From the NCBI GenBank assembly GCA_963971405.1, contig OZ020492.1:310001-374000 (forward strand): a DNA stretch of 64,000 nt, written 5' to 3'. Positions within the stretch are counted from its first letter, which is position 1. Every line of letters begins with the position of its first letter. The DNA comes from Psococerastis gibbosa. Lineage: Eukaryota; Arthropoda; Insecta; Psocodea; Psocidae. The position numbers were made by a program, and so were the translations under genes. This document shows, in pieces, positions 29,326 through 61,394 of the stretch. Under the pieces are notes generated by a model. It ran no database searches, was not told where the DNA came from, and saw nothing but the letters and a program-made list of their open reading frames with translations.

Positions 29326-29329
29326 ATTT

Positions 29330-30405: not shown

Positions 30406-30620
30406 TAGAAGAAGTGTTCCCCCACATTTTCACACATAGTATGTGGGCGTCACTAACACCAATTGGCCATAGTTTTGAAACTCATTCGATCTGCCTGCGC
30501 TACTGTTATATAAAATATCAAACCAAGATCAAGATTTGCGATCGGTTTTAATGACGGCCACATATCAAGCATCAAAATGTAGAGGAATATTTCTTCTACG
30601 TCATAACAATACCTTTACGG

Positions 30621-30810
30621 CAGGCCCGTACCCAAGGGGGGGGGGCAAAGGGGCCATGGCCCCCCTAAATTTGATAATAAATAATGTAAGAGTTTTAGCT
30701 AAAACTACTAAAATCACTACGGATGTTCCTATCATTTATAAAAATAAATAAAAATAAATAAAAATAAAAATTGCCCCCCCCCCCCAAATTAAATCCTGGG
30801 TAAGGGCCTG
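30621..30810. mobile_element. G-run hAT-type MITE, 190 bp
   Basis: Ends CAGGCCCGTACCCAAGG and CCTGGGTAAGGGCCTG are inverted. The flanking 8-mers CTTTACGG (30613-30620) and CTTTAGGG (30811-30818) agree at 7 of 8 positions. A G run and a C run lie just inside the ends. Confidence 0.85.
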
Positions 30811-30837
30811 CTTTAGGGCTCTGATCGGTAGTGTCAT

Positions 30838-31085
30838 TACATGTAGAGTAGTGGTACGGGCTCTCACGAAAGGTTGTCGGTTCGAGTCCCACACTTGCTA
30901 CATTTACTGGCATTGCTTCGGAGGGCATGTAAAACTAGATAGATAACTAGATTGATTGATAATTCGTGTATTTATCATAAATACAATACAATGCAAATTT
31001 CAAACCTGTGCCCCCTCAAGCGTGTGAGGGTTGCGCACACTCCGCTAGATTGGCTTAAAGTAATACAACAAAAAGTCATAATCTA
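30838..31085 (+). repeat. SINE family A interrupted by another insert
   Basis: The head and first body part run to about 30935 (GGAGGGCATGTAAAA). The family resumes near 31040 with CTCCGCTAGATTGGCTTAAA. The roughly 105 bp between contain ATAAATACAATACAATGCAA and look like a LINE tail. Confidence 0.75.
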
Positions 31086-31173
31086 TTTCCCTCTTCAGTT
31101 ATCTCTTGAGGTAAACAATAAATAAGCTTCCTAATATTTTATTATCTTTATTAATAAAATAAAATAGAAGTTT

Positions 31174-31346
31174 TCATCTTGGCGCAAATTCATGGTAAGG
31201 TTGATTTCGGTAAAACTGGTAGTTGCTTGGATATGGGGCTACTGAAGTTGTGGGATGCAGATGGTGATGGTGGTATATAGGACCATAGTTACATAGGTCC
31301 CCTGCATACGCCCCTGTCAGTGGAGGGCCAAGGTTCGTGCTCCCTA
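31174..31346 (-). CDS. Probable last exon of Tbx1/10
   Basis: The acceptor GTTATTTCAG|TAGG is in the phase left by the exon at 36843, giving GTA across the join. It encodes [13 protein letters not shown], a Tyr/Pro-rich stretch and the C-terminus [10 protein letters not shown] then TGA. His/Tyr-rich tails ending in (Y/F)-x-PR also occur in vertebrate Tbx1 (YDYCPR), which supports the assignment. AATAAA on the minus strand at 31152-31147 lies only about 22 bp after the stop. Confidence 0.75.
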
Positions 31347-34115
31347 CTGAAATAACATTCAAAATTTATAAACGATAGGCCTATGTGATGGAGCATGGGG
31401 ATTCGGCTACCGTCTCGCCAACAGCTGAGGGCTTCGGAGTCTACGCAACGTCTCTGAAGATGTCTACTGCTGCTGTTTGTAAGTTCACTTTCAAATTGCC
31501 ATCGCTTGTGGAAACACAGTGCTCCTTTTTGGCATTTCTGGCTAGCAGCAACTTCTCAAAGTGAACAATCTAAGCACTGTGCATTCAGCTGGTGTAACAC
31601 TGGATGACCTCATGGACCGTGTTGACCATGATGTTTAAATGTTGCAGACATTTTTTATTTTATTTTATTTTTTTTTAAAGATTAATAGCATACGAACAAT
31701 TTAATGAATGTATCCGATTGACCTCTTCAGTCGCCTCTGTAGGTTAGTACCCGTGTTAAGCTACGACACGTCTCCGATCGCATGGCGTGTAAAGACTTGG
31801 ACAAGTGCACGTTACCACCTGGCCATCGAAGTCGATTTGGGATTGTTTTTTGAGTTGTTGGAAATCGGTAGGTTAATGTTTGGTTGTTGTCTATGTTTAG
31901 TTAAAACCCGACTGCCAGAACTATTCAGACTTCCCTCGTAGACACTACAAAAGACCCTATCTAAATCACTAAATGTGCAAGAACATATGTAGGTCTGAAA
32001 GGAATTGATAAGTTTGAGGGGCATTCGCAACGCAATGTTATTCTTATATGGCTCGTAACCCAACCTTTTGTGTAGGCCTACCACGCCTGGTTTTGAGCCC
32101 GTTGGCTTCGAAGTAATATTTTCTCTTCGGGAGGGGAAGACTATACCCTAACTTCGAAAATATGATTGGGTACTGAGGGTCTAGCAGGAATGTTGGCATG
32201 TTGGTAGCGTGCTTATACTTGTGCGAGTCTCCACACACCTTGCCGTCGGAGACGTGTCGTAACTCGACACAAGTTCCTTCTAGGTAACTTAGTGAGGTGA
32301 TTGAAGGGGTTCATCGGATACATTCATTTAATTGTTTGTAGGCCTACGCGATTTAATCTTAAAATTTTATTTTATTTTATTTTATTAATATATTGGTCTA
32401 TTTGATTGGCCTCTGTTGTTGGCTTACCTGCTGTCAAGCATCTTCCGTCGACCAATGAGGTGTGCCCATTGCTGGGTTCCACAGTAGTGAGAGGGCAGCC
32501 TGAAGGCTGCAGAAAAGTATTGCTCGACTGCTCGGGACTGGAGACAGCCTCGTCATCTGGAGAAAATATATTACATCTCTACATTTTGACTTTTGCCATA
32601 GTGAGATAAAAAAATTCCACTTTCGGAACACGATAATTCCTATAACTGTTCCTACAATTGTTAATGAAACTCTAGTATTCTTTCTGAACTGTGATTGCCG
32701 CTTGTTAAATCTCAAACTGCAACTGTAAGAAGAATAAACACGTTTTCGTCTTTTGACAATTGGAATTAAGACTTGAGGCAACAATTACAGGCATATAATA
32801 GGCTAATTGTAGTTTGGTCGTTATAATTGAAACAGAGTCGCCAAAATTATAAATCAATAAAAGAACATTTTTGAACAATTCAGGCCAGGAAATGGGAGAA
32901 ACCCAAACTACCCAATTTAGAGTCAGAGAGGTTACCACTAAAGCACATGTTTACAGTTCAATAGAATAATAAAATATGCACATATATAAATATAAATTTC
33001 AAGTATGAATATCCAGGATTCGAACCAACAACCTTCCGAGACTCCAAGTTAGAGCCCGAGTATTTACCACATGTAGTAACAGTGGTTAGATAGTGTAATG
33101 TAGCGTGTCGCTTTGTGACAGTCGTCACATGGGACTCAACAAGGCGGAACAAATTTTGGGGCCACCGCCAATTCGGGGCAGGCCCCATTCAACGTAAAAC
33201 GATTAAAGTCAATACAATACAAATTTTTTTTTTTTTTTTTTTAACTTCCGTGCAACATAACATTTTATATTGTTATTCTCTCGCTTGGATTAATAGAAAT
33301 GGGTGATTTACTACTGTGCGTATTGTACAATACAATACTAATATTTTCTTAAATTAAAAAACAATAAGACCTGAGGGCTGGTAGAGGGTCCACTTTCTGT
33401 TTGGAGATGCTGTGGTTAGCAACATACCCGGTGTTCTCGAGTTTCCCCTGTAACGGTTATTCAGGTACGGTAGCCATTAGGGTTGTATGGACTCCGAGTA
33501 AGCGGGAAAAATATACTTTATTTATGTTGAGTCTCAAACCTTAACCTTCAGTTTCTTAGGGTAGTTCCCATTCAAATGGACTATTTATGATTATTGTTTA
33601 GTGATTTGTCCGGCGAAATACCCTGAAGCGTATAGCCAATTGATGAAAAATGGGATGTGTGTCGTAAAGACAAACGATAGATTTTGAGTCACAGAGAATT
33701 TTTTTTTTAAATTATAATTCTTAATACTTTTGGGTAGCAATCACAGACAAAGGGAAAGAAAGCGAGAAGGGCGTATGTCTCACTTTCCTCCGATCCCCGA
33801 AGGCTCGCAGGTCACCTATAGGGCAACCGCACCACTGAGTTGACTCCCGACAAACAGGATGGTGGAGCTATTTTTTGTCACTCAAAAAGGTTGTAGTTCA
33901 AAATTTCAAAGCTCATAAAACGTTTTACTTCAAAAATACTATTCAAAGACAGTTTAATGGATATAACAACTGGAAAATAGCTTCCAAATTAGGATCAATA
34001 GAAGTAACAGTGCTCTGTGTCTATACGTTCAATGTCAAGACAAATTCCAATTGTTACAATTACTGTGGATTTGAAAAGCAATGGCCAAGCTCAAGGTGGT
34101 TGCATCCGAGCGGGT

Positions 34116-34146
<31 letters not shown>

Positions 34147-37100
34147 AAGAAGAAGAAGAAGAAGAAGAAGATGAAGAAGAAGATGAAGAAGAAGAAGAAG
34201 AAGAAGAAGTAGAAGTAGAAGAAGAAGATGAAGATGAAGAAGAAGAAGAAGTGAATTTGTTTGCTTTATGTTTCAATTCACGTTTACTTAGTTACTTACA
34301 ATTTGCTAGAAAGTTCGCTTGTTTCGCCGTTTATTGGAAATAGGAAAATATAATGAAACCGTACGATCCGGGCTGATCGGCCGTGGTCGACCCTTTCGTC
34401 AATATCAAACCATATTAAATTGGGTCTCATCTTGTGGCGGCGCTGCATAATTTGTTTGGACTTCTGAGTTCTGATAATGAAATAAATTTAACTACTAATT
34501 TGTTTTGAGCGCAGCGCTTAATGGGATGAATTATTTTATTGAGCTATAAACATACAGATATACACAGCTATTTAACTATTATTGATAAGGAAAAGAAATA
34601 TTGTAGAATTATCTAGGGCTAAGGTCATTACAGTTCATAGTTTCTATTATATATGTGCCTAAGTTATTGATTCTTCGGCATGTAGACTGTCTTGTCATCA
34701 AGGTTTTCAATATTAGATATACAATAAAATAAACGTGTTTTACACGAAGAATGCACATTAATATTTTGTGCAAACTAGTTCGCCGGATATCATCGTATAA
34801 TGTATAACTTCAAATAAATAATTCATAAATAAATATTGACTTAGTGGAGTTAGGGGTATAAAGCCCACTCATCCACTCAACTAGGAAGACCCGGGACCGC
34901 CTGCTTTACATGCCCACCGAAGCATGGCCTGAAATTATAGCAAATGCGGGACTCAAACCTTTTGGGTGAATGTCGGAGGCTGTACCACTACTCTACATGT
35001 CCTGACTGTACATATGTATGACTGTATACTGTATAACTGGAATCCAGGCGTGGATTTAGAGTTGCTGAGGTCTTTGCCTGGGCTCCAGCGTCGTATTCGA
35101 TCCTACAGGGCCACTATACACATCAAAGTGTAGAGCAACATTATTAATTTTTTTATTGACCACCTTAGGACAATATATTCGAAAATAGAGTATCAAGTAA
35201 GGCATACGAGATTGACTAATTCCCGCACTTGGTTATGTGTCGAGCCTGTTTCAACGTCAATGGTAAGCTTGTCTATGAGCTTGTTCACTGGACACTGGCA
35301 CTAGTGGCACTTGTAGTCGGCGTGGGGTGACATTGAGGAGGGAACCAGTTTGTCAATGGGTAGCAACTCATTTGGAAACAATACCAATGACGTTTCAATA
35401 CCGGAGCCGGAGTAGGGGTTCAGTGGGCCACTAGAAGTAAGGCTACGTCCATAAAAGACCCTATCGTGATATAATCGTGAATAGATTGTGGGTTCGAGTG
35501 CCGCCTAGTCCAATTTATTTTTGATTCTTTATTTTCCGATATTTATTTATTTTTTTATAAAATGGCTAATCGCATGCAAACAATTAAATGACTGCATCCG
35601 ATTTACCTCATCAGTCACCTCTGTAGGTTAGTACCTAGAGTAACTACACGTCTCCGATCGCATGGCGTGTAGAGCCTCGCACAATTGCAAGCACGCTACC
35701 ACCTTGCTAACGAAGTCAATTATAAATATGCATATCATGTAGAGGAACATTTCCTCTATCTCCCTCATCCTCAATGAAATAGTTACGCGATGAATATTTT
35801 CTGCGAAACTTGATTATGAATAACCAAAAATACGGTGAGGTGTCCAATTTTCTTTTTAAATAGTCGATAAGCCAAGTGATTAGCATCGATAAGGTGTCTT
35901 ATGTACACCCCTGGCCCCCTCAAAATCACTTCGGGCCAATCCATCACTGTCTCATACTGTCGCTCCGTAACAAATGCCTCCCGCAGCAGCTCACCAAAAA
36001 TTTAGACCCCGCACCGTCCCCCCATTACTCAGCCCAAGTCCCAATTTCGGGGAGGTCACGGCCCCCTATACTTGAGCACAAAAAGTCCCCACGCGTGATT
36101 AATATATTTATTTATTTTTGAAGCCCATATGTTTACTTAGGGTTGTTGCAAAGGTAGAATGGGCTAAGGGCAACTAATGTCTATCTATTTTTTATTTATA
36201 TCGTTCCAGTCAGTAGCTTATAAACAAGTAATCAGTCTTTTCGGAATTGTTTATTGGGGGTCTAGAGAGAAGTTTTGCAATTTTTACTTCAACGTCCGTA
36301 TTAGTAGCAATGGCTCATAAGGGCTGTTTGCCCTTACGTGTGTTTTTTAAGATTTGTTTTTTAAGCCGTGATTGTCTGTAACTAAAGTTGATGAATGAAC
36401 TAAAGCAGAAACGGGAGAAGGAGCTATAGCAGCTGGAAGTAGTTTATTAACAAGTAATTAGTCTTTCTTGATTTTTTGTTTTGTTTGGATCTACAGGGAA
36501 ATTTTGCAATGTTAACTATGTGTTCTGTCTATTAATTCGTTGGTTTGTTTTCCAACAGAAATTAGAGGAAATAGAAAAAACTGGACTTGACGGGATCCGA
36601 ACCCACGATCTACGCCTATCCGGGGCGTTGTCTTGTTTTTCAACGCCTGCCTTCAGCATTTCTGCTTTTAGCAACCCTGTCAACCTGGCGGGGGGAGTGA
36701 GTCTGTTTAATAACTTCAGGCACCATAAAGGCAGACTCGTTTACCTCAGCATGTGATTTAAAAAAATTGTTGCAGCCGTTTTTTAGAAATAATTTTGTTA
36801 TTTGTTTTTCTGGAGGGGGGAGGAGGGTTGGGGATAACTTACCTTTACCAGAGGAACCAGAAGTTCTCGCGACTGGTGTTCTCTGAATTTGGTTCATAAC
36901 TTCCCCGCTGCAATCTTCAGAGTCACAATCCCGAAATCCCTTCGCAAATGGGTTACTCGCAATTTTTAGTTGTGTTATCTGAATAAGAAGGAGGGTTATT
37001 AGCCAAAGAATTAAAAAAAAAAAAAATGAAGTACCAAAATCAAAAACACAAAAAATATGTTTGCGACCATAGCTGGTGAAAACATAATTTCCGGGATTAA

Positions 37101-40100
37101 TTGAGTAAGCAGAGCCTGATTTAGGAATTTGCCACCCCGGGGCTACTTCCTTAGAATTTTTTTTTCATTATAAGTAATTGAGAACAAACATAGGGTCGAC
37201 ACCGCCGACGACAAATTTAATCATTAATGGAGTTACAATTCTGGTACCTACTCAAGCGAGAATTGGCCGCCGCCCTGGGCTGTAGTCCAGTTCGCCTAGT
37301 GGGTAAATCAGGCCCTGATTAAAAGAGTGGGACAAATGTAAAAATAAAGACAACTTTCTTTCTTTCTTTCTTGTATTTCCAGATTACTAAATTGACACTA
37401 GGTATGTGGTCTGTAGCTTACCCTATGGTTTTGATATGCTGTGACGGCGGTAAATTTGGTTTCAGTAAATATAAAAGTCTTAAAGTTATCGGTATTGCTG
37501 GTGACCACCTCACATTTGGGTGGAATGTACAGGACGTGGAACCTTGGCTGGTACCTATGCATTGAGTTAAGAATTATCTGAAACAACAAAGTTATTAATT
37601 CGAACCTAATTAATTGTTTCACGTTGATGTACGAAAACAAATGCGAATTGGCGCGATAGGATGCGAACTTGGTACATCTACTAAGGGTTAAAGAAATAAT
37701 ACTTTAATAAAAATTACATAAATAACTAATAATTTCATTGATATTCAGTATTAAAAAGTTAGTGGAGTCGGAGTCAGATGAGGGAACAGCGGCTAATGGG
37801 GTCTTTCTGAAATCTTACTTGCTAATTGCCCGTAACGGATTTTTTCGGGGGAGGGGGCGCGATTCTATATAGTATGTAGTAAAATATCACACGTCTGGAA
37901 AGTTCTATAACGTGTAAAGGAAAACAATACGGAGGGGGGTCAGAGATACAAACTTCTGTCCACGTAGTGCCACTACACATTTATTTATTTATTTATTACT
38001 GCAGATGCCGATCGCAGCTGTTGACAAAACGTTCGGAAGTGTGGCAAGGACATCCGACTCCACTACTTTTTTTCCTTTAACTCGATTGTGTATTATAATG
38101 TAAATAATTATTACTTTTTCTTTAAATTGACAATGTTCCATGTATTCCTTATGGGGAAAGTTCATGTCTGTAACTCAATCAATTTTTTATAAATATTAAT
38201 TTTAATTTATTTAATAATTTTTAGGCGCGGGACTCTTTCGAGTATTTGCGCCGGTCAAATATTAATTCTTAATTTTGTTATTAATTATTTAATAAAAAAT
38301 ATGTAATATTAATTATTAAGCCATAATCATCTCCCCCTCTTGAACAGCTTTCCATACCAGAAATTAATTTGAAAATCCGTCGGTTAGAACTTAGAACTCG
38401 AACCACAATATAAGAGTGTAAGTATGTCAGCATGTCTTAGTTGGAGACATAAATTATGATATTTATCCTAGCAATGTAATACATGCAGACAAGAGCGGAT
38501 CCATTGGAAAATGTAGGGGGGGGGGGGTCACAAGTTGCAAGTTTAAAAGTTTTTTTTAAATTTGAGTTTTATTCAGTTTAAAAAAAAAAAATTGCTATCA
38601 AATTAATTTACTCATTTAGGGGGTCATGACCCCCCTGACCACCCCCCCCCCCTGTGGATCCGCCATTGCATGCAGATAGCTTAGATTATTTGAGTGTTTT
38701 GAGTTATTTGATTATTTGAGATATTACTGGACTTTGTATGGTGTATCCCGCACGCCTCTATGAAGGCATGGGAGCCCTAATTGCATTTTGATGTATATTT
38801 ATTGGAAATAAAGAATTTTTATTCTTATTATTATTACTATAGCGCGCACGGAATCGGGGAATTGGTACCGGTAGGCGGTATATTGTCATTGACTCTCTTA
38901 GTAGACATGTGCATAGCTTATGACACAGGAGGGGGACAGACAGACAGACCAGTTTAGCGACGAATTAATGAGTGGCGATTCTTATTTTTAGTTATGATTA
39001 ATAAAGTGTATTTTTGGCTTACATGGCCATTATCATCAAGCTGATTATTAGTAAGCTTCAGTTTGTCGAAGGAAACCACTTGCTTCATCCACTGTGTACC
39101 GGAAGCCGGGGAGTCGGGGTGAACGTGGATTCTGGGAGGGGAAATCGGGTCTGCTTTGCCAGCCACAACCCAACTAGAACTGAAAATAACATTAAATAAA
39201 TAAATAAATAAAATCTGCCCTGTTGCTATACCAACCAAATACCAATTACCTAACCTCAATTGTGTAATACAATATTAATAATAATCCTGAAGGACGTTTC
39301 TATGACCCTAGGCCTACTTACAGTGGCCCATTGGTCTCTTGTTCAATGCCAAAAAAGACCCCATGAATTTCGGACATTATTTATATATTTTCCGTAAGAA
39401 TTTTGGACCATTGGTATACGGGTATACGTCCTCGATGTCAACCTATATCGGTTTCAAGCGATAATGGGCAAGCTGTGATAAGCTTACGCAGGCCCCAGTG
39501 TAACAGGTGGAAGCATGACTTATGCAGTACATATACGAGTCGGTCTAATACTATAGAGGCGTTTATTTCGGTTCCCTATAATATGTTAACTACTGCGCAC
39601 GCCTCTTTCTACTTTCCTCCTCTTTGGCTTAGTCCTTATGTTAAACTTACGCGTTCAACCCATGTTTCAATAGAGTAAATATTTAAATAATGAATTTTTG
39701 TTCTATTACAAAACCGGTCTAGCGGAGTCACTTACACTAAACTGGGACCGCCTGCTTTACATGCCTCCAACGCATGTCCAGACAATGTAGCAAGTGTGGG
39801 ACTCGAACCAACAACCTTTCGGATGATAGTCGAAGTCCGTACCACTACTCTACATGCCCCGACGGCGGGCAATAAATGAGCGTCTTGCGATTCTCGTTGC
39901 TCATTAGTTATCCGCAAATTGAACATGAAAATTGAACGTGAAAGTTGAACGTGAAAGTTGAACGTGAAAGTTGAACGTGAAAGTTGAACACGAATGTTGA
40001 ACACGAATGTTGAACGTAAAGTACAGTGTTTCGAGAATAAGTGTTTCAACTTCAAGCCTTTCAAAAAAATTGAAAACGAAATCGGATAGTTGTTGCGCTA

Positions 40101-42070
40101 GGGGTAGTGCCGATTAGATTATAGATCTATCTGCACTTAATTTTGAAATTCTTCTCTGTATAACTTTTGACTTTGGTTTGAATTTTTTTTCCTTTTAGTG
40201 TCTATAGATTTTTTCGTCACTTACCAGTTCTCAAAATGATTCAGGCCTACCTGTGAAACGCGTATCTATATCGTTTATCGTCTACCGGGACGAAATCCAT
40301 CATAAGCATGTAGTCGGCATTGGGATCCAAGCCGTAGAGCCTGGTTTGGAATGTTGGAAACATGCGCCTGAAATCAATCAAACTTATATACTTCCACCCA
40401 GGGAAAAGTATTTTCTTCTGGTATAAGCTTGAATGAACGGTGGGGGGGGGGGGCTGCCCCTTGGTTACGGGCCTAGACAAGCAAGGCCAGACTCGAACAA
40501 TGTTTTCGTCCAATTTTCATATCTTTCTCTGCCTACATTTAGGAGGCTCGCTACAAACTGGAAACTAAGAGAACTGGGGAAAAGGTTGGAAATACAGCCA
40601 TGCGAAGAACTTACAGGCTTACATGCATTTTTTTAGCCTGCGGGGAGCTGTGTGTTGCATATATCTTTCATTTTAATATTATTGCAAAGGCTTTCACGGC
40701 CTGAGTTACGTGATGAATCAGTAGAATCCGGGATGATAGTTCGTTCAGAAAGTGTACTTCCAAATGTTTCGTCAACATCTGCGGTTGACATCGTCAGTGG
40801 AACTACGTAGACTTCTAAGATTGTATCTCGGAGGCTCAGCAGCAACTGTGCAGTCTACGCAGTTCCACTGAAGATGTCGACCGCAGATGTTGACGAAACG
40901 TTTGGAAGTACACTTTCTGAACGACCACGGCCTATCATTCCGGATTGTACTGATTCATCACAATCATTTTCAATTAGATAAACAACCCGATTCTCCATTT
41001 TGAACTACAATTTTCCATTACTATATGGACGAAAAGCCGAAAAGTGCATTTTTAAAGAGGTAGAAAGACCATCCATGACTAACGCGGCGGAGTACTGGCA
41101 ACTGAAGAACGAGGAAGAGCAATTGCTGCATGTGGTGGAGGCCCGAAGACACAACTCCCACGGGTATAAACTATAATGGACTGGAAGAGATGAACTAAGA
41201 ACCCGAGTGGAGATGCAGGTTGCTGGCATCACCGTGAAAGTCTGAGAGAGGAGGTTAGCATGTCACACGAAGATGAGAGAAGATCGCCACCTGATTAGGG
41301 ACGGGTCCTGCCTATTTGGGGGGGGGGGGGGGGAGTTGTGGGTCAAAATAGAACAACTATATGTAGTATCGAGCAGCGTAAAAAAATCAACTTACAACAG
41401 ATTTACTAAATTTTGTTGGGGCAGATACCCACCTCCCCCCTCCCCCTGTACCCGTCCCTCGTCCATGCACCTGATACAATGTGTGAGTGAGTGTGCGGTT
41501 GTTCTTAGAAAGAAAGGTGAGGGGGTTCTCAGGACCCTGGATCAGTCATCAAAAGATGGACAACGAAAGCCGCCAACCCAGTGGAAGGGATAAAACGCCA
41601 CTACAGCCCAGCCTCGGTTGAAAACAGGAAAGACCAAACGGACGACACCTAGACACCTATAGAGGAGACTGAAGAGGTCACTCGGATATATTCATTAGAT
41701 TGTTTGTATGCGATTAATCTTTCCTTAAATAAATAATTAAATCAAATCAAACAAATCTTCTGGGAGACAGTAATGTAGGCTAACCTGCCAAGGGTGGGCG
41801 TTGGCTAGCAAGTAAATGGAAGGAAAGTTAGACTAACTTACCTGCCAGCTTTAGTAACAATCATTTCGGTGCCTAATTCGTGAAATTCGTCCCACAGGGA
41901 TTTCATTTCTAGAACAGCTCCACAGCCAAGCAGCTTAGGGTGCTTTCTGCCCCCCGCACTTGCACTTTTTCCCATTTCTGTCCTGTCCGATGCTTGTTCC
42001 CTCAACTGCTCTAATTTTTTAAGGGATGCGTAGTCGTCCCTCCTTGACTTTCCGACGGTAACCAAGCATG
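31174..42070 (-). CDS. T-box transcription factor, Tbx1/10 (org-1) subfamily, 5' exon missing
   Basis: Six exons on the minus strand are recognised: 42070-41842, 40367-40251, 39179-39023, 37577-37422, 36978-36843 and 31346-31174. All have GT/AG sites and consistent phases, and together give 322 codons. The T-box is complete from [18 protein letters not shown] to [44 protein letters not shown] and [11 protein letters not shown] are typical of Tbx1/10 rather than Tbx20 or Tbx2/3. Such proteins bind T-box DNA sites in the nucleus; org-1 and Tbx1 act in muscle and pharyngeal development. The first exon supplies one base of a split codon and was not found. A further exon may lie in the 5.5-kb last intron. 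Confidence 0.93.
31425..31480 (+). repeat. Penelope-like terminal fragment
   Basis: TCTACGCAACGTCTCTGAAG and ATGTCTACTGCTGCTGTTTG resemble the PLE-type motif kept better at 40865-40910 (CACTGAAGATGTCGACCGC). The GAAACG part is lost. Confidence 0.4.
31675..31842 (-). repeat. SINE family B, near full length
   Basis: It has CATACGAACAATTTAATGAA, CTCCGATCGCATGGCGTGTA and CACCTGGCCATCGAAGTCGA. It forms an inverted pair with the copy at 32187. Confidence 0.88.
32187..32366 (+). repeat. SINE family B, near full length
   Basis: It has a GTTGGTAGCGTGCTTATACT head, the GTCGGAGACGTGTCGTAACT core and the GATACATTCATTTAATTGTT end. The tail is ATTTTATTTTATTTTATT. The 345 bp separating it from the inverted copy hold no recognisable repeat. 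Confidence 0.88.
32985..33085 (-). repeat. tRNA-like SINE head
   Basis: On the minus strand a box A-like CTACATGTGGTAAATACTC and box B GGTTCGAATCC lie about 40 bp apart, with AAGGTTGTTGG before box B as in family A. It is diverged and lacks the family A body. Confidence 0.5.
34117..34252. repeat. (GAA)n microsatellite
   Basis: About 135 bp of AGA/GAA repeats with GAT and GTA interruptions lie in the last intron of the Tbx1/10 gene. The poly-Arg frame across it is not a gene. Confidence 0.95.
34837..35003 (-). repeat. SINE family A copy
   Basis: A reverse copy with GGACCGCCTGCTTTACATGC, GGGACTCAAACC (box B) and GTACCACTACTCTACATGTC (box A). Confidence 0.85.
35245..35430 (-). repeat. Dispersed repeat F copy
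   Basis: GCACTTGTAGTCGGCGTGGG then GTGACATTGAGG, and TTTGTCAATGGGTAGC, match repeat F in reverse. Confidence 0.5.
35480..35530 (+). repeat. SINE family C fragment
   Basis: GATTGTGGGTTCGAGTGCCG then CCTAGTCCAATTT matches the T arm and acceptor of family C (20848, 36555). Confidence 0.5.
35565..35722 (-). repeat. SINE family B copy
   Basis: GCATGCAAACAATTAAATGA, CTCCGATCGCATGGCGTGTA and CACGCTACCACCTTGCTAAC are present. Confidence 0.85.
36555..36632 (-). repeat. SINE family C copy
   Basis: CGGGATCCGAACCCACGATC preceded by TGGACTTGA, then CCGGGGCGTTGTCTTG. It shares both the tRNA-like part and the AAATTAGAGGAAATAG flank with 20848-20921. Confidence 0.65.
36843..36978 (-). CDS. Tbx1/10 exon: T-box end and linker
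   Basis: A 136-bp exon between CTTATTCAG|ATAA and GGTAAAG|GTAAGT. It encodes [20 protein letters not shown], the DNA-contacting end of the T-box, followed by a Ser-rich linker. It ends with one base of a codon. Confidence 0.93.
37110..37317. mobile_element. hAT-type MITE, 208 bp, in a Tbx1/10 intron
   Basis: Ends CAGAGCCTGATTTAGG and GGGTAAATCAGGCCCTG are inverted repeats with the CAGGGCCTGATTTA form often seen in hAT elements. No exact target duplication is visible. Confidence 0.7.
37340..37375. repeat. LINE or SINE tail with (TTTC)n
   Basis: AAAAATAAAGACAACTTTCT then TTCTTTCTTTC closely matches 12082-12121 (AAAATAAAGACAATTTTCTT), so both are 3' tails of one retroelement family. Confidence 0.6.
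37422..37577 (-). CDS. Tbx1/10 exon: T-box part 4
   Basis: A 156-bp exon between TTGTTTCAG|ATAA and CATAGG|GTAAGC. It encodes [20 protein letters not shown], a family-variable [10 protein letters not shown] loop and the conserved [13 protein letters not shown]. Confidence 0.95.
37995..38045 (+). repeat. Penelope-like terminal fragment
   Basis: CTGCAGATGCCGATCGCAGC, TGTTGACAAAACGTTCGGAA matches the motif at 40868-40910 with substitutions in the hammerhead-like core. Confidence 0.5.
38490..38668. mobile_element. hAT-type MITE, 179 bp, perfect 8-bp target duplication
   Basis: CATGCAGA is duplicated at 38482-38489 and 38669-38676. The ends CAAGAGCGGATCC and GGATCCGCCATTG are inverted, with a G12 run inside the left end and a C run inside the right. 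It lies in the Tbx1/10 intron between exons 37577 and 39023. Confidence 0.92.
39023..39179 (-). CDS. Tbx1/10 exon: T-box part 3
   Basis: A 157-bp exon between TTATTTTCAG|TTCT and GGCCAT|GTAAGC. It encodes [20 protein letters not shown] then [20 protein letters not shown] and the DDNGH end. Confidence 0.95.
39313..39505 (+). repeat. Dispersed repeat F, long copy
   Basis: GGCCCATTGGTCTCTTGTTC, AATGCCAAAAAAGACCCCAT, CCTCGATGTCAACCTATATC, AGCGATAATGGGCAAGCTG and GTAACAGGTGG occur in order. The same order is seen at 46492-46675 and 56150-56360. The class is unknown. Confidence 0.65.
39700..39860 (-). repeat. SINE family A copy
   Basis: It has GGGACCGCCTGCTTTACATG, GGGACTCGAACC and GTACCACTACTCTACATGCC. 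Confidence 0.88.
39920..40012. repeat. 13-bp minisatellite
   Basis: About seven copies of TTGAACGTGAAAG and variants lie in a Tbx1/10 intron. Confidence 0.85.
40251..40367 (-). CDS. Tbx1/10 exon: T-box part 2
   Basis: A 117-bp exon between GATTTCAG|GCGC and CACAG|GTAGGC. It encodes [20 protein letters not shown] and [19 protein letters not shown], the highly conserved T-box core. Confidence 0.95.
40690..40975. mobile_element. Head-to-head pair of Penelope-like element termini
   Basis: Two arms of about 115 bp are inverted around a 50-bp centre. Each arm carries, read outward, CTGA(A/C)GATGTC, an 8-9-nt loop and GTTGACGAAAC(G/A). This combination (CTGANGA, short stem, GAAACG) occurs in the terminal repeats of many Penelope-like elements, where it forms a hammerhead ribozyme. 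The reverse transcriptase itself is absent. Confidence 0.6.
41296..41467. mobile_element. G/C-run hAT-type MITE, 172 bp, perfect 8-bp target duplication
   Basis: CACCTGAT is duplicated at 41288-41295 and 41468-41475. AGGGACGGGTCC near the left end pairs with GTACCCGTCCCT near the right end. G16 and C-rich runs lie inside. It is in the first visible intron of Tbx1/10. Confidence 0.85.
41655..41740 (+). repeat. SINE family B 3' fragment
   Basis: GAGACTGAAGAGGTCACTCG then GATATATTCATTAGATTGTT matches the 3' end of family B, with an AAATAAATAATT tail. Confidence 0.75.
41842..42070 (-). CDS. Tbx1/10 exon: pre-T-box and T-box start
   Basis: The acceptor is TTCCTCTGTTTCAG|CATG and the donor GGCAG|GTAAGT. 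It encodes a basic/acidic segment ([20 protein letters not shown]), then [20 protein letters not shown], the first T-box strand. The exon starts in phase 1, so an upstream coding exon must exist beyond 42070. Confidence 0.92.
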
Positions 42071-42820
42071 CTGAAACAGAGGAATAAAGAAATAAATGCA
42101 AGACTCCAGGTAGCCTCGTGCAGCCTCGCCTTATCTCAGCGGGTGTCTGAAGCCTTGCATTCTAACTTCGTCACTCGCGGTTTTCGCGAAGAAAAATTGT
42201 CCCAAACCGGTACTTGAACTCAGTTCACCTGGGTGATAGTTACTTATTAAAAATAATTTATTAATATTAATTGTTCAAGTTTTTGGAGAGTCCATGGACC
42301 CCCGGATCCCCCATTTAACAGGGATATAATTTAATTCACTTGAATCAAGACGGTAAGACATGAAGAATTGGCTAGTATTATTCAGCGGAGTAGTCAGAAT
42401 TTTCTTTTTAATGGTGGGTCCGGTGTAAAACAGTTTACTCACTTACGAGTACCCCAGGCGACACGAATGGCCCATATAAATCGAATTAAATGTTACCTTG
42501 TCCCAGGGGTTTCTTACATGTGACTTAATCCGTTTCAACGATGAAAACGTACTGGAAAATTAGCTATTTTGCTAAATTTGGGGGGAGGGGTCCGCTTGAT
42601 AATATATTTGTATTTAAGTGAAAAGTACCATACCTGACGGATTTCGATTTAGAAAAAAACGTCGTTTTCGCGTTTTGGTCCGCAGCTTGAGCCGTCCCTG
42701 TGACGGATGTAAATCCAACCACAAACAAGCTTCAAAAGAATATAAATAGATCGAAAAGAGTCTTGCCGCGAGAGGCCTGCATTCGGAATGTTACAGAGAA
42801 ATCGCTCGAGTTCCATTGCA
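42071..42820. other. Stretch upstream of the first visible Tbx1/10 exon
   Basis: I looked for the missing 5' exon on the minus strand and found none. C/G-run patches at 42298-42312 and 42579-42593 suggest MITE remnants. Confidence 0.4.
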
Positions 42821-44386
42821 TTGTAACCGCACTGCCCTACTAATTATTCAGCTTCTCAGGGGTGACTAAACATGTCAAGGACGCCTAATTATTGTACAAG
42901 ACGATAGCTGCAAAGTTAATAAACAGATAGCAGCACTGTTTAAATGGAACTTTAAAGACTGATGTCTTATTGTAACCGCACTGCCCAAATAATTATTCAG
43001 CTTCTCAGGGGTGACCTGACATGTCAAGGACGCCTAATTATTGTACAAGACGAAAGCTGCAAAGTTAATAAACAGATAGCAGCACTGTTTAAATGGAACT
43101 TTTAAGACTGATTTCTTATTGTAACCGCACTGCCCAACTAATTATTCAGCTTCTCAGGGGTGACCAGACATGTCAAGGACGCCTAATTATTGTACAAGAC
43201 GATAGCTGCAAAGTTAATAAACAGATAGCAGCACTGTCTAAATGGAACTTTTAAGACTGATTTCTTATTGTAACCGCACTGCCCAACTAATTATTCAGCT
43301 TCTCAGGGGTGACCAGACATGTCAAGGACGCCTAATTATTGTACAAGACGATAGCTGCAAAGTTAATAAACAGATAGCAGCACTGTTTAAATGGAACTTT
43401 AAAGACTGATTTCTTATTGTAACCGCACTGCCCAACTAATTATTCAGCTTCTCAGGGGTGACCAGACATGTCAAGGACGCCTAATTATTGTACAAGACGA
43501 TAGCTGCAAAGTTAATAAACAGATAGCAGCACTGTTTAAATGGAACTTTAAAGACTGATTTCTTATTGTAACCGCACTGCCCAACTAATTATTCAGCTTC
43601 TCAGGGGTGACCAGACATGTCAAGGACGCCTAATTATTGTACAAGACGATAGCTGCAAAGTTAATAAACAGATAGCAGCACTGTTTAAATGGAACTTTTA
43701 AGACTGATTTCTTATTGTAACCGCACTGCCCAACTAATTATTCAGCTCCTCAGGGGTGACCAGACATGTCAAGGACGCCTAATTATTGTACAAGACGATA
43801 GCTGCAAAGTTAATAAACAGATAGCAGCCCTGTTTAAATGGAACTTTAAAGACTGATGTCTTATTGTAACCGCACTGCCCAACTAATTATTCAGCTTCTC
43901 AGGGGTGACTAAACATGTCAAGGACGCCTAATTATTGTACAAGACGATAGCTGCAAAGTTAATAAACAGATAGCAGCACTGTTTAAATGGAACTTTAAAG
44001 ACTGATTTCTTATTGTAACCGCACTGCCCAACTAATTATTCAGCTCCTCAGGGGTGACCAGACATGTCAAGGACGCCTAATTATTGTACAAGACGATAGC
44101 TGCAAAGTTAATAAACAGATAGCAGCACTGTTTAAATGGAACTTTAAAGACTGATTTCTTATTGTAACCGCACTGCCCAACTAATTATTCAGCTTCTCAG
44201 GGGTGACTAAACATGTCAAGGACGCCTAATTATTGTACAAGACGATAGCTGCAAAGTTACTTAACAGATAGCAGCACTGTATAAATGGAACTTTACAGAC
44301 TGTCGTCTTATTGTAACCGCACAGCCCTAATAATTATTCAGTTACTCAGGGATGCTGACTAAACATACAAAAGCCACCTAATTATA
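42821..44386. repeat. 149-bp tandem satellite, ten units plus a partial
   Basis: TTGTAACCGC recurs at 42821, 42970, 43119, 43268, 43417, 43566, 43715, 43864, 44013, 44162 and 44311: ten intervals of exactly 149 bp. The central units differ at a few sites only (for example TTCTCAG versus TCCTCAG). The first unit, unit 10 and the partial unit after 44311 are more diverged. Confidence 0.97.
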
Positions 44387-45873: not shown

Positions 45874-45885
45874 TTTATTGTTCTT

Positions 45886-46206
45886 ATGTTGCAAAGTAAC
45901 TTAATAGATAGCAGCACTCATGGCCGTGCTCAGAGGGGTGGTCCAAGGGGTCCGCCCCCCCCCCCCCCGAATTAAAAGGGCTTTACACAAATTTAAATTT
46001 AATTTTATATTTTAGGGATACAATTTATCATTTTATGTACACCTGTATTGTTTGAAGAATTGGAATAAATTTATTTGAGTTTAAACACTGTATAGAATGG
46101 ACTTTTATTAATAAATTACGTAAAAAAAGTTTTGGACAGCCCCCATCCACCGAAACCAATACCTGGGCCGGGCCACTATAAATGGCACTTTACAGACTGA
46201 TGTCTT
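45886..46206. repeat. Stray satellite unit split by a MITE
   Basis: GTTGCAAAGTAACTTAATAG then ATAGCAGCACT (45888-45918) and ATAAATGGCACTTTACAGAC then TGATGTCTTATT (46178-46209) are the two halves of a 149-bp satellite segment. They resemble unit 10, the divergent edge unit. The insert between is a C-run MITE. Confidence 0.85.
45919..46177. mobile_element. C-run MITE inserted in the stray satellite unit
   Basis: Ends CATGGCCGTGCTCAG and CCTGGGCCGGGCCACTA are inverted and match the family of 18282-18449. A C14 run follows the left end. Confidence 0.75.
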
Positions 46207-47590: not shown

Positions 47591-47593
47591 TGC

Positions 47594-48285
47594 TTTCCAA
47601 TTTATACGTAGTATAAAGTAAGCTTTGTGATGGTCAAAATTTTCAATTCCGAGATTTCAACAGATTTACAAGTTTTCAGGTCCCAGGAACCTAAAAAAGT
47701 GGTTTTTACGAAATGTCTCTCTGTCACTCTGTATGTCTGTCTGTCGCTCTGTATGTCTGTCTGTCTGTCTGTCTGTCGCTCTGTCTGTTCATCGATTTCC
47801 GGGCAAACTACTCGGTCGATTTTGATAAAATTTGCCATGTAGGTTCACTAAAATCATGTCTCGGGATTTTTATTTTTATTTTGGGGGTGAGTCACTTGCC
47901 CCTTGGTAGTTTTTTTCTAGGGGTAAAAAAATAAAAATAAGTCAACTTTCAGGAAAAACGACTAAAAAATAATTATTCTGGGGAACATTTCTATCGATAT
48001 CTGGTGGGTCCGGACCCCCCGCCCCCCGAAACGTTTGAAGCGTACACTAGATAGAATGGAGTTTTAAGGATTTTTAAATACGATTATATTTGCGTATATT
48101 GAGGTTACCTCACCTCTGGTGATGTCAGATGGACCCCCCCCCCTCCCCCGAAGGATCTGAAACTTAACCATAGGGAAATTATTTACTGAAATAATTAATA
48201 ATATATATTTATGAAATAATTCATTATCTCTATCTACTAATTGATCAATTGGAAAGCATGTTCGAGTATACTCGGACCGGTTCTT
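47594..48285 (+). mobile_element. Helitron-like family E copy (692 bp)
   Basis: It has the same ends as 45034-45873, including the palindrome CGAGTATACTCG before GACCGGTTCTT. It is shorter in the middle. The section 47997-48140 is a reversed relative of the MITE at 60711-60865 (ACTCCATTCTA, GGTGAGGTAA strings in complement). Confidence 0.65.
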
Positions 48286-50205
48286 ATTTATTTATAGGTA
48301 GGAAAGAGCACGGCTGCTGGATATGTTGCTAACCACATCACCTCAAATAGAGTTGCGAAAGAAGATCTTCTACCGGTCCCAAATGACCGTCTTTTCCATT
48401 TTAAGGAGCAATCGGGGCAATCGTAGGTGGAAAAGCCTTACAGGAGTACAAAACCAAATATAACTTGAAATATCGATGAGCTGTCATCTCTGTGTAGAAA
48501 TGCTCATCTACATTTTGACAAGTTAATAATAATAATAATAATAATAGTAATGTTAATCACTGGCTCTCGAATCGTCCTTCTATACCGAGGCTAACTGTAG
48601 GTACTTTTGCCTGAATTAGATTGAGGTTCTTCTATCAAGTATTTCCAGGCTGAAAGAACTCCATGACACGACAAGTCAGCGATGCAGAAAATTTCTGGAG
48701 ATGTTTTTTTTAAAACTTATCAATGACTTTTTTCTTACCTTCTATTTGCTTCATAGGCGTAGTATAAGGCTGAACTCCAGGCGTCGTGCACCAGTCATAG
48801 CAGCATTCCGACCCAGGCTCCGCAAGTCCTGTATAGTGTATCATAGCGACAAAAAACTTGCAGAAAACTTTAGAAAATTTCACAGATTATTTAATTTAGT
48901 TCTTTTTTACACAAGTATTATTATTGGCTGAGTCAATTTTTCAACTTCCGTAGGAGATTCACTTCACATCGTATTTACATGTTCATTTAGTACAAATACG
49001 TTCTCATTAGGTAGACTAAGCTACAGTTGACGGGCTGAAATTAATACAATGAAAATGAGTGGTTAGTAAATAATAAATAAATAATGACTTTTAGATCTGA
49101 TACTAAGCCAACCTAGTAAAGTTGTATATAAAATATTTGATTATATTACATTAGGAATATTGCCATTTATCTGATTTAGGGCTTGCAAATCTTGTTCCAA
49201 TTCATTATGAAAATTTTTATGTTAATTGCAAAATTGGGATAACCAATGAGCCAAGAAACAAGTTTTCTGCAGTTTATCGTTAGTCTACTGTAATTAACAG
49301 TTAATAATATAAAATAATATGCAATATGTTAAGCAGTTGAATTTTTATATTTCGGTTTCACTTGTTAATTTTAATTACTACTAATTTAAATGCAATATTT
49401 TTTTTTTAAAGTTGTAAAATGGGCAAGACCCTTGTATTTTGATTTTAAAAAAAATAATAACACTTTAGCAGGATATCCTCAAACACAGCCTTACTTCCGA
49501 TGGGCTCTCAACATCTGAACCATCGTACCTAATTTATTTATTTATACCATTTGTTAAATTGTTAGTCAATTTTATCCGACTTGCATAAATCATTTATGGA
49601 AAGTCTGTCTAATAAATTTTTTCAGACTTTGCATTAATTTTAGACTCACTGATCGGATTAGCAATAGTTCAGTTAAGCTACGCTACATTTGTAAAATTAT
49701 ACTGCTGGAGGAAGTGTTAATTAAAATTAAAAGTATATAATAGCCTAAAAATTAATCGTTCAATTATTTTTTACCGGTAAATAGGCTAACAATATCCCAT
49801 ATTAACAAATTTACGTTTTAAATATTAAATGTTATTACTATTATTTCTCCAATAGAAACAAGTGCTGTCTAATAGTGGTATTAGCATATAGGATAGGTAG
49901 TGTTTTAGGTGAACGTCGGGTCGGGAAACTTCTCAGGCGCATTTACCGTTCAAATTTTGTTGTTGTTGTTAACGCGTTAAGGTTGGATGGTAACCTTGTC
50001 AACTAATTTCTGATATTCTCATTATGTTCCTCGATGCTTATAGATTTGTTGCGTATTACCTGTGCGTGTGACAGTCGTGTGTTATATATATATATGTATA
50101 TATGTGTATATGTTAAAATTAAATAGTAGTTGTCAACACAATAAAACAATGCAGACTTTTTTCTATTATTATTATTATTTTTTACATATATATAAAAATA
50201 TAAAA
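48286..50205. other. Gene-free stretch
   Basis: I found no exon to support. An AG acceptor at 48757-48758 opens a 55-codon Arg-rich frame to 48931 with no recognisable family. The rest is AT-rich with (AAT)n at 48527-48546 and (TA)n near 50083. Confidence 0.4.
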
Positions 50206-50209
50206 CAAA

Positions 50210-50830: not shown

Positions 50831-51015
50831 TAAGAAACCCTAACGTATGTATTGTATGTGTGTGCATTATATTATTTTTCTAATAATTCTGAACTTTCGT
50901 GACGTTTCTTTGCTCCTATCAATAAATGTAGGCTTATAGGTCAATTGGAAGAATATTTGTCAACTGTAGTCTACGGGACGTACACAATAACTTCCAACGC
51001 GAGACATCATGATGA

Positions 51016-51880
51016 AAGAACCGGTCCGAGTTCACTCGAACATGTTTTCCAATTTATAAATTAGTAGATATAGACATGTGTAATTTCATGGGAAATAATT
51101 TCCCTGTGGTTAAATTTCAGATCCCTCGAGAGGGGGGGGGGCACCTCAATATAGTAAAAAACCCCTTAAAACTTAATTGCATATTCTGGAACGAACAGAC
51201 CAATACATTGCAACAGTAGTAACAATGACACACACATGGCATGTAATGTATTGGAGCGTGAATTTTCCATAATTTTTCAAAAAATAATTTTTTGCACAGA
51301 AGCAAATATTTTTTTGGGAATGCAACCTGTTCGTTTTTGTTACCCTATTGAACACCTAAAACATACCTGAAGGTAGAAATCATCGATAGAAAGGTTCCAC
51401 AGAAAATATATTTTTTAGTCATTTTTCATGAAAATTGAGTAATTTTTATTTTATTACCCCCTGAAGCAAACTATCAAGGAGCAAGCGACCCCACGCATTT
51501 TGTTAAAATTAATAACGACTATAATATATGTGAATTTAAAAGAAATCGTTGGAGCCGTTTTTGAGAAATAATTTTTTTAGACTTTTTTCGAGTTTTTTGA
51601 AAATAAATCCCCCCCAACTTGAGTTAGCCCAAATAAAAAAATTATCTCGAGGCATGATTTTTGTGAACCTACATGCAAAATTTCATCATAATCGACCGAG
51701 TATTTTGCCCGGAAATCGATGAACAGACAGACAGACATACAGACAGAGCGACAGACAGACATTTCGTAAAAAACACTTTTTGGGTTCCTGGGACCTCAAA
51801 ACGTGTAAATCCGTTGAAATCTCGGAAACAAAAATTTGGAACATCACAAAGCTTTCCTTATACTACTTATAAATTGGAAA
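51016..51880 (-). mobile_element. Helitron-like family E, full-length copy (865 bp)
   Basis: Reverse copy with AAGAACCGGTCCGAGTTCAC at its 3' end and TTTCCAATTTATAAGTAGTA (minus strand) at its 5' end. It shares CATCGATAGAAAGGTTCCAC and TCGATTTCCGGGCAAAATAC with the other copies. Confidence 0.7.
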
Positions 51881-55780: not shown

Positions 55781-55784
55781 TGAG

Positions 55785-57080: not shown

Positions 57081-57084
57081 TGGC

Positions 57085-58405: not shown

Positions 58406-58559
58406 GAAAAAAAATGAACCGTCAAAATAATGGACTTAGGTAGCACAATGTTGAAACTATCTACCATCAATGGACATGGCCTCACTCACTGTGACGTCAC
58501 AATGACTGTTCCCGTTATAAGAAAATTTTGCGTGCTTTAAATTCACAAATATTGTAATC

Positions 58560-59700: not shown

Positions 59701-59706
59701 CTGCAG

Positions 59707-59826: not shown

Positions 59827-59829
59827 GTA

Positions 59830-60100
59830 AGGCGGCAATTCCACCGGCGACTTAACTTCATTTGTGATTTTTTGTTTGTTTCATTTTAAGGAGGCCATTA
59901 TGTAGTTACTACACTTATCTATTATAAATTAAGTTATAATTTGGTAGAGACTTATTAATGATGTCTGCTACCATATTATAACTTAATTTATATAGATAAG
60001 ACTAATAAGTTAAGTATCTACATAATAGTCTCCTTAAAACAAAACAAGCGAAAAATCTCAAATCACAAATGAAGTTAAATCGCCGGTGGAATTGCCGCCT
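59830..60100. mobile_element. Palindromic MITE, 271 bp
   Basis: AGGCGGCAATTCCACCGGCG at the left pairs with CGCCGGTGGAATTGCCGCCT at the right. Pairing continues through CTTAACTTCATTTGTGATTT and TAAATTAAGTTATAATTTGG, so arms of about 120 bp meet near a small central loop. It begins four bases after the end of the candidate exon. Confidence 0.9.
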
Positions 60101-60705
60101 AAGTTCGTCAAGAACCGTTTTTGTCTGTATAAGTCTCAGTTAATTTTTAGTTCGTGTTAGAGAGTGTGGGAAGGGCACCTGTGTGGTTTGCTTCTAACAA
60201 CTTTCAGAGCACTACGTGATGCTACTTACTTAATACTGGTATAGGTACGTTATATACGTACAGCGTACGTATAGAAGTGATAGAGCATAAGCCCAAGAAG
60301 TCTGTTTACATTCTGGACCCTTCAGAAAATATTTATTATAAGCAACACTAACACCTCGTTTGCCAGACACACTTACTTAAAAACCGTATAAATAAGAAAG
60401 TAAATTTATGATTACCCAAAAAATTCGGTTTCACGCTTTGACACGGTCTCCTATAAATATTATTGAAATAAAATTCTGGCAAGGAAACTGTGAGAGAATT
60501 TCATGAGTAATAAAAGTCAAAAAACTCCAGCCCAGTCTTTCAACGAAGGCACATTTCCATCTGAACGCTATCCAAAAGGAATTTTTTGTCATATTTTTTT
60601 TATATTTTTTATGAAGTGTCGACGGGTGGTATCTCGATTCTTATTGGTCATTCAGTGAAATATTGGGCACAAGCCGCAAATTTGTAGTTTCAACCATCAG
60701 ACGTC
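60101..60705. other. Gene-free stretch
   Basis: I see nothing that can be supported as an exon or repeat. Confidence 0.4.
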
Positions 60706-60710
60706 ATTTG

Positions 60711-60865
60711 CAAGACCGTAGCCAGAAATTTTTCCGATGGGGGGTCCATCTGACGTCACCGGAGGTGAGGTAACTTCAATATATTTAAAACTCCATTCTA
60801 TGTAGTGTACGCTGAAAATATTTCGGGGGGGGGGGGGGGGTCCAGGGGGTCCAAACCCCCCTCTG
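60711..60865. mobile_element. G-run hAT-type MITE, 155 bp, perfect 8-bp target duplication
   Basis: GTCATTTG is duplicated at 60703-60710 and 60866-60873. The left end is CAAGACCGTAGCCAGAAATT; the right ends CCCCCCTCTG. A G18 run lies at 60823-60840. Confidence 0.85.
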
Positions 60866-61035
60866 GTCATTTGCTTACTGTGGTTCAGAAGACTGACGGT
60901 CGGTGCTTCCCGCTACGGAAGTAGATATCTACTTATTGGCTATGCAGGACGAATTAATGGAAGAATTCTATTTTCATAGTCTTCTTAACAGTCATGAGGA
61001 AAACTGGTTTCTACTAGTATATCATATAGTAATAT

Positions 61036-61209
61036 CAATAGCGAAACCACGGTGGAGGGAGTCAGGGGGGTCATGAACCCCCTAAATAAGTAAATTCATA
61101 AGATAGTTAACAAAAAAAATTAATTGAATAAAACTCAACTTTTCAAAAACAGATTACCTTTTAACCTTGTGACCCCCCTACATTTTTCCTTCCGCTGGAC
61201 CCGCCCTTG
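61036..61209. mobile_element. G-run hAT-type MITE, 174 bp, perfect 8-bp target duplication
   Basis: AGTAATAT is duplicated at 61028-61035 and 61210-61217. The ends CAATAGCGAAACCAC and GCTGGACCCGCCCTTG are imperfect inverted repeats. Confidence 0.88.
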
Positions 61210-61394
61210 AGTAATATCCTAACCCTGAAGACAGTACCGAGACTTTTTTAATTCCTTTAATTTACTATTAAATTTAATTTAATTATGGAAAATAGTGTAC
61301 ATGGGCCAGTGTCGCAAACATTTCCCGAAATGGAAAACATAAGACTAAATTAACTAATGTAATGGATAATTTGCAAGATCTAATAGATATGGTT

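What the first reader, a model, noticed from the sequence alone, without database searches (positions are those of the whole stretch)
30613..61217. A cohort of short hAT-type MITEs with G or C runs and 8-bp duplications
Copies at 38490, 41296, 60711 and 61036 have perfect 8-bp duplications, and 30621 a 7/8 match. All are 155-190 bp with long G or C runs just inside the ends. Their TIRs differ (CAAGAGCGGATCC, CAGGCCCGTACCC, CAAGACCGTAGCC), so several families share the same odd G-run design. Many more fragments are scattered from 9 kb to 61 kb.
Basis: partly seen in the sequence, partly recalled or inferred. Interest (0 to 1): 0.7.

Follow-up and report, generated by a model that had tools for sequence, protein, structure and literature searches.

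The report
Lopsided G-tract ends on miniature transposons
Many families of tiny jumping DNA elements in this (probably animal) genome carry a run of Gs near both tips, close to the tip at one end and about one helix turn further in at the other, which suggests that the two ends may have to differ for the element to move.

Summary
The window lies in a 409-Mb, probably animal, genome. The elements are short hAT-like MITEs with 8-bp target duplications. So the run belongs to the family. Its length does not: 3-9 in 16, 11-14 in 18, absent in 1.

The new point is that the two ends differ. One has the G tract at about position 15, straight after the TIR, usually followed by a C tract. The other has it at about 27, behind an A/T-rich spacer. 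I noticed this in the window, then tested 200 kb of other genome scanned without a G condition: all 10 pairs (of 18) with a tract on both ends had one of each. Over 18 elements the offset is 11.2, sd 2.3 bp.

Hermes and Herves (hAT) are published cases of unequal ends. I read the G tract as a visible ruler for such asymmetry. Shared ancestry is the main rival. No transposase was identified; the genome search answered one request.

The parts
38490..38668 (+). Family A MITE, 179 bp; long end left (G12 at position 27), short end right (G11 at position 17, then GGGGGGTCATGACCCCC)
   Evidence: perfect TSD CATGCAGA; genome copies
61036..61209 (-). Family A MITE, 174 bp, inverted relative to 38490; C6 and an interrupted tract where 38490 has 12 and 11
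   Evidence: perfect TSD AGTAATAT
30621..30810 (+). MITE, 190 bp, TIR CAGGCCCGTACCC; short end left (G10 at 16), long end right (G12 at 26)
   Evidence: TSD CTTTACGG/CTTTAGGG
41296..41467 (+). MITE, TIR TAGGGACGGGTCC; long end left (G16 at 23), short end right (GGGGGAGGGGGG at 15); right CACCTGAT repeat is 7 bp outside the recognisable TIR end at 41460
60711..60865 (+). MITE, TIR CAAGACCGTAGCC; long end left (G6 at 29); outer right TIR missing
   Evidence: 8-bp repeat GTCATTTG on both sides
23810..23973 (+). MITE, TIR CAAGGGCGGATTT; long end left (G11 at 27); right end has a C run inside the TIR instead of a G tract
   Evidence: TSD CTTGTCGC/CTTGTCGG
29210..29391 (+). MITE, TIR CAAGGGCGGACCC; long end left (G12 at 28); no G tract at right end; internal short tandem repeat
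   Evidence: TSD GCAGCTGC/GCAGCAGC
18282..18449 (+). MITE, TIR CTTGGCCGTGCTC/CAAGGCCGTGCCC; short end left (G6 at 15, then C13), long end right (G7 at 27); no ungapped TSD (3/8)
45919..46178 (+). Relative of the 18282 element; short end left, long end right; no TSD (1/8), TIR 5/13
9015..9146 (+). MITE-like piece, short end left (G5 at 14), long end right (G10 at 30); no TSD
12529..12657 (+). MITE-like piece, TIR CAGTAGCGCCATT 12/13; short end left (G7 at 15), long end right (G-rich at 29); no TSD
15228..15336 (+). Fragment: long end only (CAGGGACGGTTTCAG, GGGGAGGGGGG at 27); right side abuts a SINE-like repeat
40440..40475 (-). Single short-type end (TAGGCCCGTAACCAAGGGGCAGCCCCCC)

Best explanation
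These are non-autonomous hAT-like MITEs from many families that share one asymmetric end plan. Short end: TIR of about 14 bp, then a G tract at about position 15, usually followed by a C tract that makes a quasi-palindrome. Long end: TIR of about 14 bp, 10-12 nt of A/T-rich spacer, then a G tract at about position 27, with no following C tract. SHOWN: 8-bp TSDs, the TIRs, the set positions, the pairing of one short with one long end, and unstable run length. INFERRED: the tract (or the site it lies in) is a subterminal binding site of one or a few related hAT transposases, and the two ends differ by about one helical turn because the transpososome works with two unlike ends, as in Hermes. Once a tract passes about 8-9 bases, replication slippage lengthens it to 10-16, so the length itself carries no function (also inferred).
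For: Family A: 35 hits of one TIR pattern, tract at 26-29 in 33; 18 with a recognisable second end, 11 of these with TSD 7/8 or better, 5 perfect; 15 of 17 such copies outside the window are long+short. Blind scan of 200 kb: 18 TIR+TSD pairs against 1 in one Markov copy; all 10 with a G tract at both ends are one short (13-17) and one long (25-29). A looser mechanical scan of window plus sample: 12 long+short, 0 short+short, 0 long+long among 23 pairs; 11 of these 12 are elements already counted, one is new. 18 elements: short 15.4 sd 1.1, long 26.6 sd 2.0, offset 11.2 sd 2.3; within 62 nt a C tract follows the G tract on 14 of 18 short ends and 0 of 18 long ends; a block shuffle gives 3.2 on average, 9 at most, against 18. 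Of 116 testable G/C runs of 10 or more, 36 have a TIR-like 8-mer within 60 nt on the 5' side (random places 6.5%), most often at distance 16 (5 cases) and 26-27 (12 cases). Run length at the homologous family-A site: 3-9 or 11-14, none of 10; the genome sample has 6 runs of 8, 5 of 9, then 16, 20, 21 of 10-12. Published hAT parallels: Herves motif at right-end 15-22 and within left-end 31-47; Hermes LE/LE retains little activity, RE/RE none.
Against: No transposase or autonomous partner was found, so binding and a need for unlike ends are inference. Families may descend from one lopsided ancestor and so not be independent: with one row per family the window alone gives P = 0.07. The 8 window elements were curated partly by eye near G runs. 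The result depends somewhat on the G-tract rule: at 4 of 7 one short+short pair appears in the blind sample; at 6 of 7 one long+long pair appears there and two in family A. The offset runs from 7 to 16 bp, so 'one helical turn' fits only on average. Of the 116 long runs, 22 have a TIR-like 8-mer on the 3' side too, so polarity is a tendency. Hairpins at the 14 ends folded are not clearly stronger than dinucleotide shuffles; the best z is -1.76. In Hermes the right end is bound by no BED domain (abstract), unlike a plan with a site on each end, and restoring asymmetry in the first 50 bp did not rescue LE/LE.
Confidence: 0.6

Rival explanations
1. Shared ancestry without constraint: one ancestral hAT element happened to have unlike ends, and all families inherited them. 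The G tract has no role.
For: Many TIRs resemble each other (CARKGSCG start) and long-end spacers share A/T-rich stretches. Pairs without any G tract also have TIRs and perfect TSDs (L227 5498, L228 1982), so a G tract is not needed for every hAT-like element here.
Against: TIRs and spacers differ between families, yet the tract positions stay within sd 1.1 and 2.0. G tracts keep their place even where short or interrupted, though slippage could have blurred sites of no importance.
Confidence: 0.3
2. The G runs are later slippage products with no ancestral tract.
For: Homologous sites vary from 3 to 14 Gs, and one copy has none; one site is C6-G-C6 in one copy and C16 in another.
Against: The tract, short or long, starts at 26-29 in 33 of 35 hits of the family-A TIR. 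Run class is unrelated to copy divergence (17 long against 14 short, P = 0.92).
Confidence: 0.04
3. The long runs are a sequencing or assembly artefact of homopolymers.
For: The spectrum of run lengths is two-peaked for G/C but not for A/T, which could reflect a base-caller.
Against: An artefact of length would not place tracts at 15 and 27 from transposon tips, nor explain interrupted and 5-7 base tracts there. [quoted passage not shown]
Confidence: 0.06

Closest known systems
BmMITE-13 of silkworm (Pegasus-like; PMC2997013, table row and passages seen)
   Same: TIR CAAGGGCGGATCCAG (commonest family-A form here: CAAGAGCGGATCCAG, 14 of 15; the window copy 13 of 15), 8-bp TSD, 263 bp, MITE
   Different: Interior not compared: no full sequence was seen, and the strings GGGGG and G-rich occur 0 times in the main text. 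No end asymmetry was seen in the passages shown.
Herves (hAT, Anopheles; PMC3143072, passages including the abstract)
   Same: Transposase motif at 15-22 on the right end and within 31-47 on the left end, i.e. a near and a far site
   Different: Motif is CG/AATTCAT, not a G tract; the element codes for its transposase and has long ends; further binding at right 61-90
Hermes (hAT, housefly; PMC10368747, passages including the abstract)
   Same: Unlike ends matter for activity; the left end has a quasi-palindrome of two BED sites within bp 11-27
   Different: Sites are AAGT/AAGC repeats along both ends; the right end is bound by no BED domain in the structure; much longer ends are needed
12/23 recombination signals of V(D)J joining (recalled; PMC12205992 seen as a listing with the start of its abstract)
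   Same: One short and one long spacer whose difference (11 bp) is close to the offset here
   Different: Different enzyme and motifs (recalled); no heptamer or nonamer match was looked for; likeness in design only

Membership tests
hAT superfamily | 8-bp target-site duplication | tested here: met
   perfect at 38490 and 61036; 11 of 18 two-ended family-A copies at 7/8 or better, 5 perfect; 18 pairs in 200 kb against 1 in one Markov copy. Four of the 11 window elements show no TSD, and in 41296 it is offset
hAT superfamily | short TIR starting C/TA-RNG (consensus recalled) | tested here: met
   CAAGA, CAGGC, CAAGG, CAGTG, TAGGG and others fit; the left ends of 61036 (CAATA), 18282 (CTTGG), 45919 (CATGG), 9015 (CAGCC) and the right end of 41296 (GAGGG) depart
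hAT superfamily | transposase with BED finger and hAT dimerisation domain | tested here: inconclusive
   none found in 10 of the 21 window ORFs of 120 aa or more scanned with Pfam; no transposase search of the genome was made
MITE | short, non-coding, many copies, TIRs | tested here: met
   two-ended family-A copies 153-258 bp; 35 exact hits of one 18-nt TIR pattern, 0 for the reversed control; coding capacity not tested beyond their size
Pegasus-like BmMITE-13 | TIR CAAGGGCGGATCCAG with 8-bp TSD | tested here: met
   commonest family-A TIR 14 of 15; right TIR of 61036 CAAGGGCGGGTCCAG 14 of 15
Pegasus-like BmMITE-13 | shared interior sequence | not testable with these tools
   no full sequence seen in the paper; no collection of insect genomes on hand
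12/23 recombination signals | conserved heptamer and nonamer | not tested
   only spacing was compared

The most novel reading that the evidence does not exclude
A short/long end rule in hAT transposition: across many families a mobile element must pair one end whose subterminal G site lies about 15 bp in with one whose site lies about one helical turn further in, and like-with-like pairs are not mobilised. This would be a second, independent 12/23-type rule, written visibly in what the sampled density suggests are thousands of genomic copies.
Probability: 0.25. Interest if true: 0.8.

Novelty: new variant of a known kind. Interest (0 to 1): 0.58.

Why it matters
hAT ends are known to be unequal in the few elements studied in the laboratory, but why is open. 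Here the asymmetry can be read by eye in a G tract at two set distances, in many families of about 130-350 bp, so the minimal ends and the spacing rule could be tested with very small donors. The same copies also give many homologous poly-G sites for measuring where homopolymer instability sets in, since one site in one family shows lengths of 3-9 and 11-14 but not 10 (35 hits).

Tried and rejected
Three patterns with a following G run gave 0 in viral contigs. A window protein used to look for the host in viral contigs gave nothing. Hairpin energy of 14 ends: best z -1.76. Run length against copy divergence in family A: no relation (L203, which has no run, was left out of the alignment, rows L193 and L216 with divergence of 0.35 or more were dropped, and L222 with nine Gs falls in neither group; L216 looks like a chance TIR match rather than a copy). 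'Each element is its own family': rejected for 38490 and 61036. A plain perfect-TSD reading of 60711 and 41296: qualified as told. Literature: in ten searches no listed title was on a G-tract or short/long end rule in hAT MITEs; several lists were cut (for example 15 of 607, 12 of 23, 15 of 78), and one search used terms too loose to be of use. The library lacks most subscription journals and Repbase, where I recall invertebrate hAT consensus sequences with G runs near the tips, so the sequences themselves may well be on record.
Full report
Observation. The five elements exist. Two have perfect TSDs next to recognisable TIRs (38490, 61036), one has 7/8 (30621), one has a perfect repeat but lacks the outer right TIR (60711), and one has a perfect repeat that lies 7 bp outside the right TIR (41296). 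A scan for CA...TG pairs with TIR 9/13 and TSD 7/8 gave 8 hits against 5, 3, 0, 4 and 0 in five Markov copies; four of the 8 are G-run elements (23810, 29210, 30621, 38490) and the other four look like chance. 38490 and 61036 are one family.

G runs. The window has 25 G/C runs of 10 or more and none of exactly 9; the spectrum falls from 175 (length 4) to 1 (length 8) and 0 (length 9) and rises again to 7 at length 12, while A/T runs fall without a gap, with a mild excess of long ones (28 of 9 or more against 10.6 by extrapolation). Eleven elements (some picked by eye near G runs), 1,898 bp or 3.0% of the window, hold 12 of the 25 long G/C runs but 2 of 28 A/T runs of 9 or more. In 200 kb elsewhere in the genome the same two-peaked spectrum appears: 6 runs of 8, 5 of 9, then 16, 20, 21 of 10, 11, 12; 93 runs of 10 or more in all.

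One search placed the window in a 409-Mb genome (68 contigs) and found 35 exact hits of one 18-nt TIR pattern, 0 for the reversed control. All 35 were read (window copy plus L193-L226). The G tract starts at 27 in 24, 28 in 5, 29 in 3, 26 in 1, 31 in 1 (L216, probably not a true copy), and is absent in 1. Pure-run lengths are 3-9 in 16, 11-14 in 18, absent in 1. Eighteen have a recognisable second end; 11 of these have TSD 7/8 or better and 5 are perfect. So the tract is a fixed family feature and its length is not. Alignments show the same: C6-G-C6 against C16, C6 against C10-T-C5, 12 against 6. Human repeat data in print describe, for A runs, instability rising rapidly between roughly 5 and 10 nt, and an initial expansion bias (PMC12769509, passages); a like onset for G runs would give such a gap (inferred).

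Two unlike ends. In the window, the first heptamer with five or more Gs (beyond position 12) lies at 14-17 on one end and 23-31 on the other in all 8 elements that have it on both ends; 3 of the 11 lack it on one end. Random re-pairing gives P = 0.02, and 0.07 with one row per family (6 families), so this alone was weak. I noted the pattern before fetching test data.

Blind test. Twenty evenly spaced 10-kb stretches were scanned for TIR 10/13 and TSD 7/8, 80-800 bp, with no G condition: 18 pairs, against 1 in one Markov copy. Ten have the G tract on both ends; all ten are one short (13-17) and one long (25-29). The other eight: four with no tract, three with a long tract only, one with a short tract only; one of them, L239 314-990, looks like a chance pair. 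A looser mechanical scan of window plus sample gave 12 long+short and no like pairs among 23; the other 11 lack a tract on one or both ends. Eleven of those 12 are elements already counted, so this scan is a check of the rule, not new evidence of the same weight. Changing the rule to 4 of 7 yields one short+short pair in the sample, and to 6 of 7 one long+long pair in the sample and two in family A.

Size of the offset. Over the 18 elements (8 window, 10 sample) the short position is 15.4 (sd 1.1), the long 26.6 (sd 2.0), the offset 11.2 (sd 2.3, sem 0.55; range 7-16); if all pairs were independent, re-pairing would give 2.9e-5, but families are related. Shuffling the blocks inside each end gives 3.2 such elements on average and 9 at most, against 18. 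Within 62 nt a C tract follows the G tract on 14 of 18 short ends and no long end. Starting instead from all G/C runs of 10 or more (116 of 118, two too near a stretch end), 36 have a TIR-like 8-mer within 60 nt on the 5' side, 22 on the 3' side, against 6.5% of random places; 5' distances are most frequent at 16 (5 cases) and 26-27 (12 cases).

Mechanism. hAT transposases bind subterminal repeats; in Hermes through BED fingers, with two sites just inside the left TIR forming a quasi-palindrome; left/left donors retain little mobility and right/right none (PMC10368747, passages). In Herves the motif lies at 15-22 on the right end and within 31-47 on the left (PMC3143072, passages). The plan here, a near site with a following inverted tract on one end and a far site on the other, is the same kind of thing in a compact form. 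I infer that the G tract lies in the transposase's subterminal site and that unlike ends are selected at synapsis. The competing view is one lopsided ancestor. Two facts of the Hermes paper speak against a simple parallel: its right end is bound by no BED domain, and restoring asymmetry in the first 50 bp did not rescue left/left donors.

Comparison. The commonest TIR of family A is 14/15 identical to BmMITE-13 of silkworm. So the elements are members of a known kind. The short/long plan shared by many families, and the two-peaked poly-G lengths at homologous sites, were not found described in ten literature searches, with the limits told.

Limits. One genome of unknown species, taken as animal from a weak T-box match and the kind of repeats; no transposase; no count of like-end pairs across the whole genome, because the search service answered one request only.

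Noticed in passing
36640-37164 (-): ORF holding the end of a T-box domain (Pfam T-box, E 0.00088, below the curated cut-off); by recall most like Tbx1/10, so the host is probably an animal.
   Followed up: partly
1162-2484 (-): Retroelement-like ORF (by its look) with a DUF7041 domain (E 8.1e-20) and repetitive stretches.
   Followed up: no
42671-44460: Tandem array of about ten 149-bp units, 94-98% alike in the middle; one unit fragment recurs at 46179.
   Followed up: no
45034-45880, 47587-48292, 51015-51880 (-): Copies of a 0.7-0.9 kb repeat (two of them 81% alike) with CTTTCCAATTTAT-like inverted ends, each carrying a G/C tract; in the 47587-48292 copy this stretch matches the 60711 element at 71%.
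   Followed up: partly
12702-12887, 15331-15519, 30186-30374, 34839-35001 (-), 62492-62652: A SINE-like repeat family with a tRNA-like GTTCGAGTCCC box; one copy abuts the truncated MITE at 15228.
   Followed up: no
window and L227-L246 (264 kb): 118 G/C runs of 10 or more, about one per 2.2 kb; only 36 of 116 testable ones have a TIR-like 8-mer within 60 nt on the 5' side, so many lie in unrecognised pieces or elsewhere.
   Followed up: partly
41461-41467: The 7 bp between right TIR and right CACCTGAT repeat may resemble the element's own tip; perhaps a footprint of a second event.
   Followed up: no
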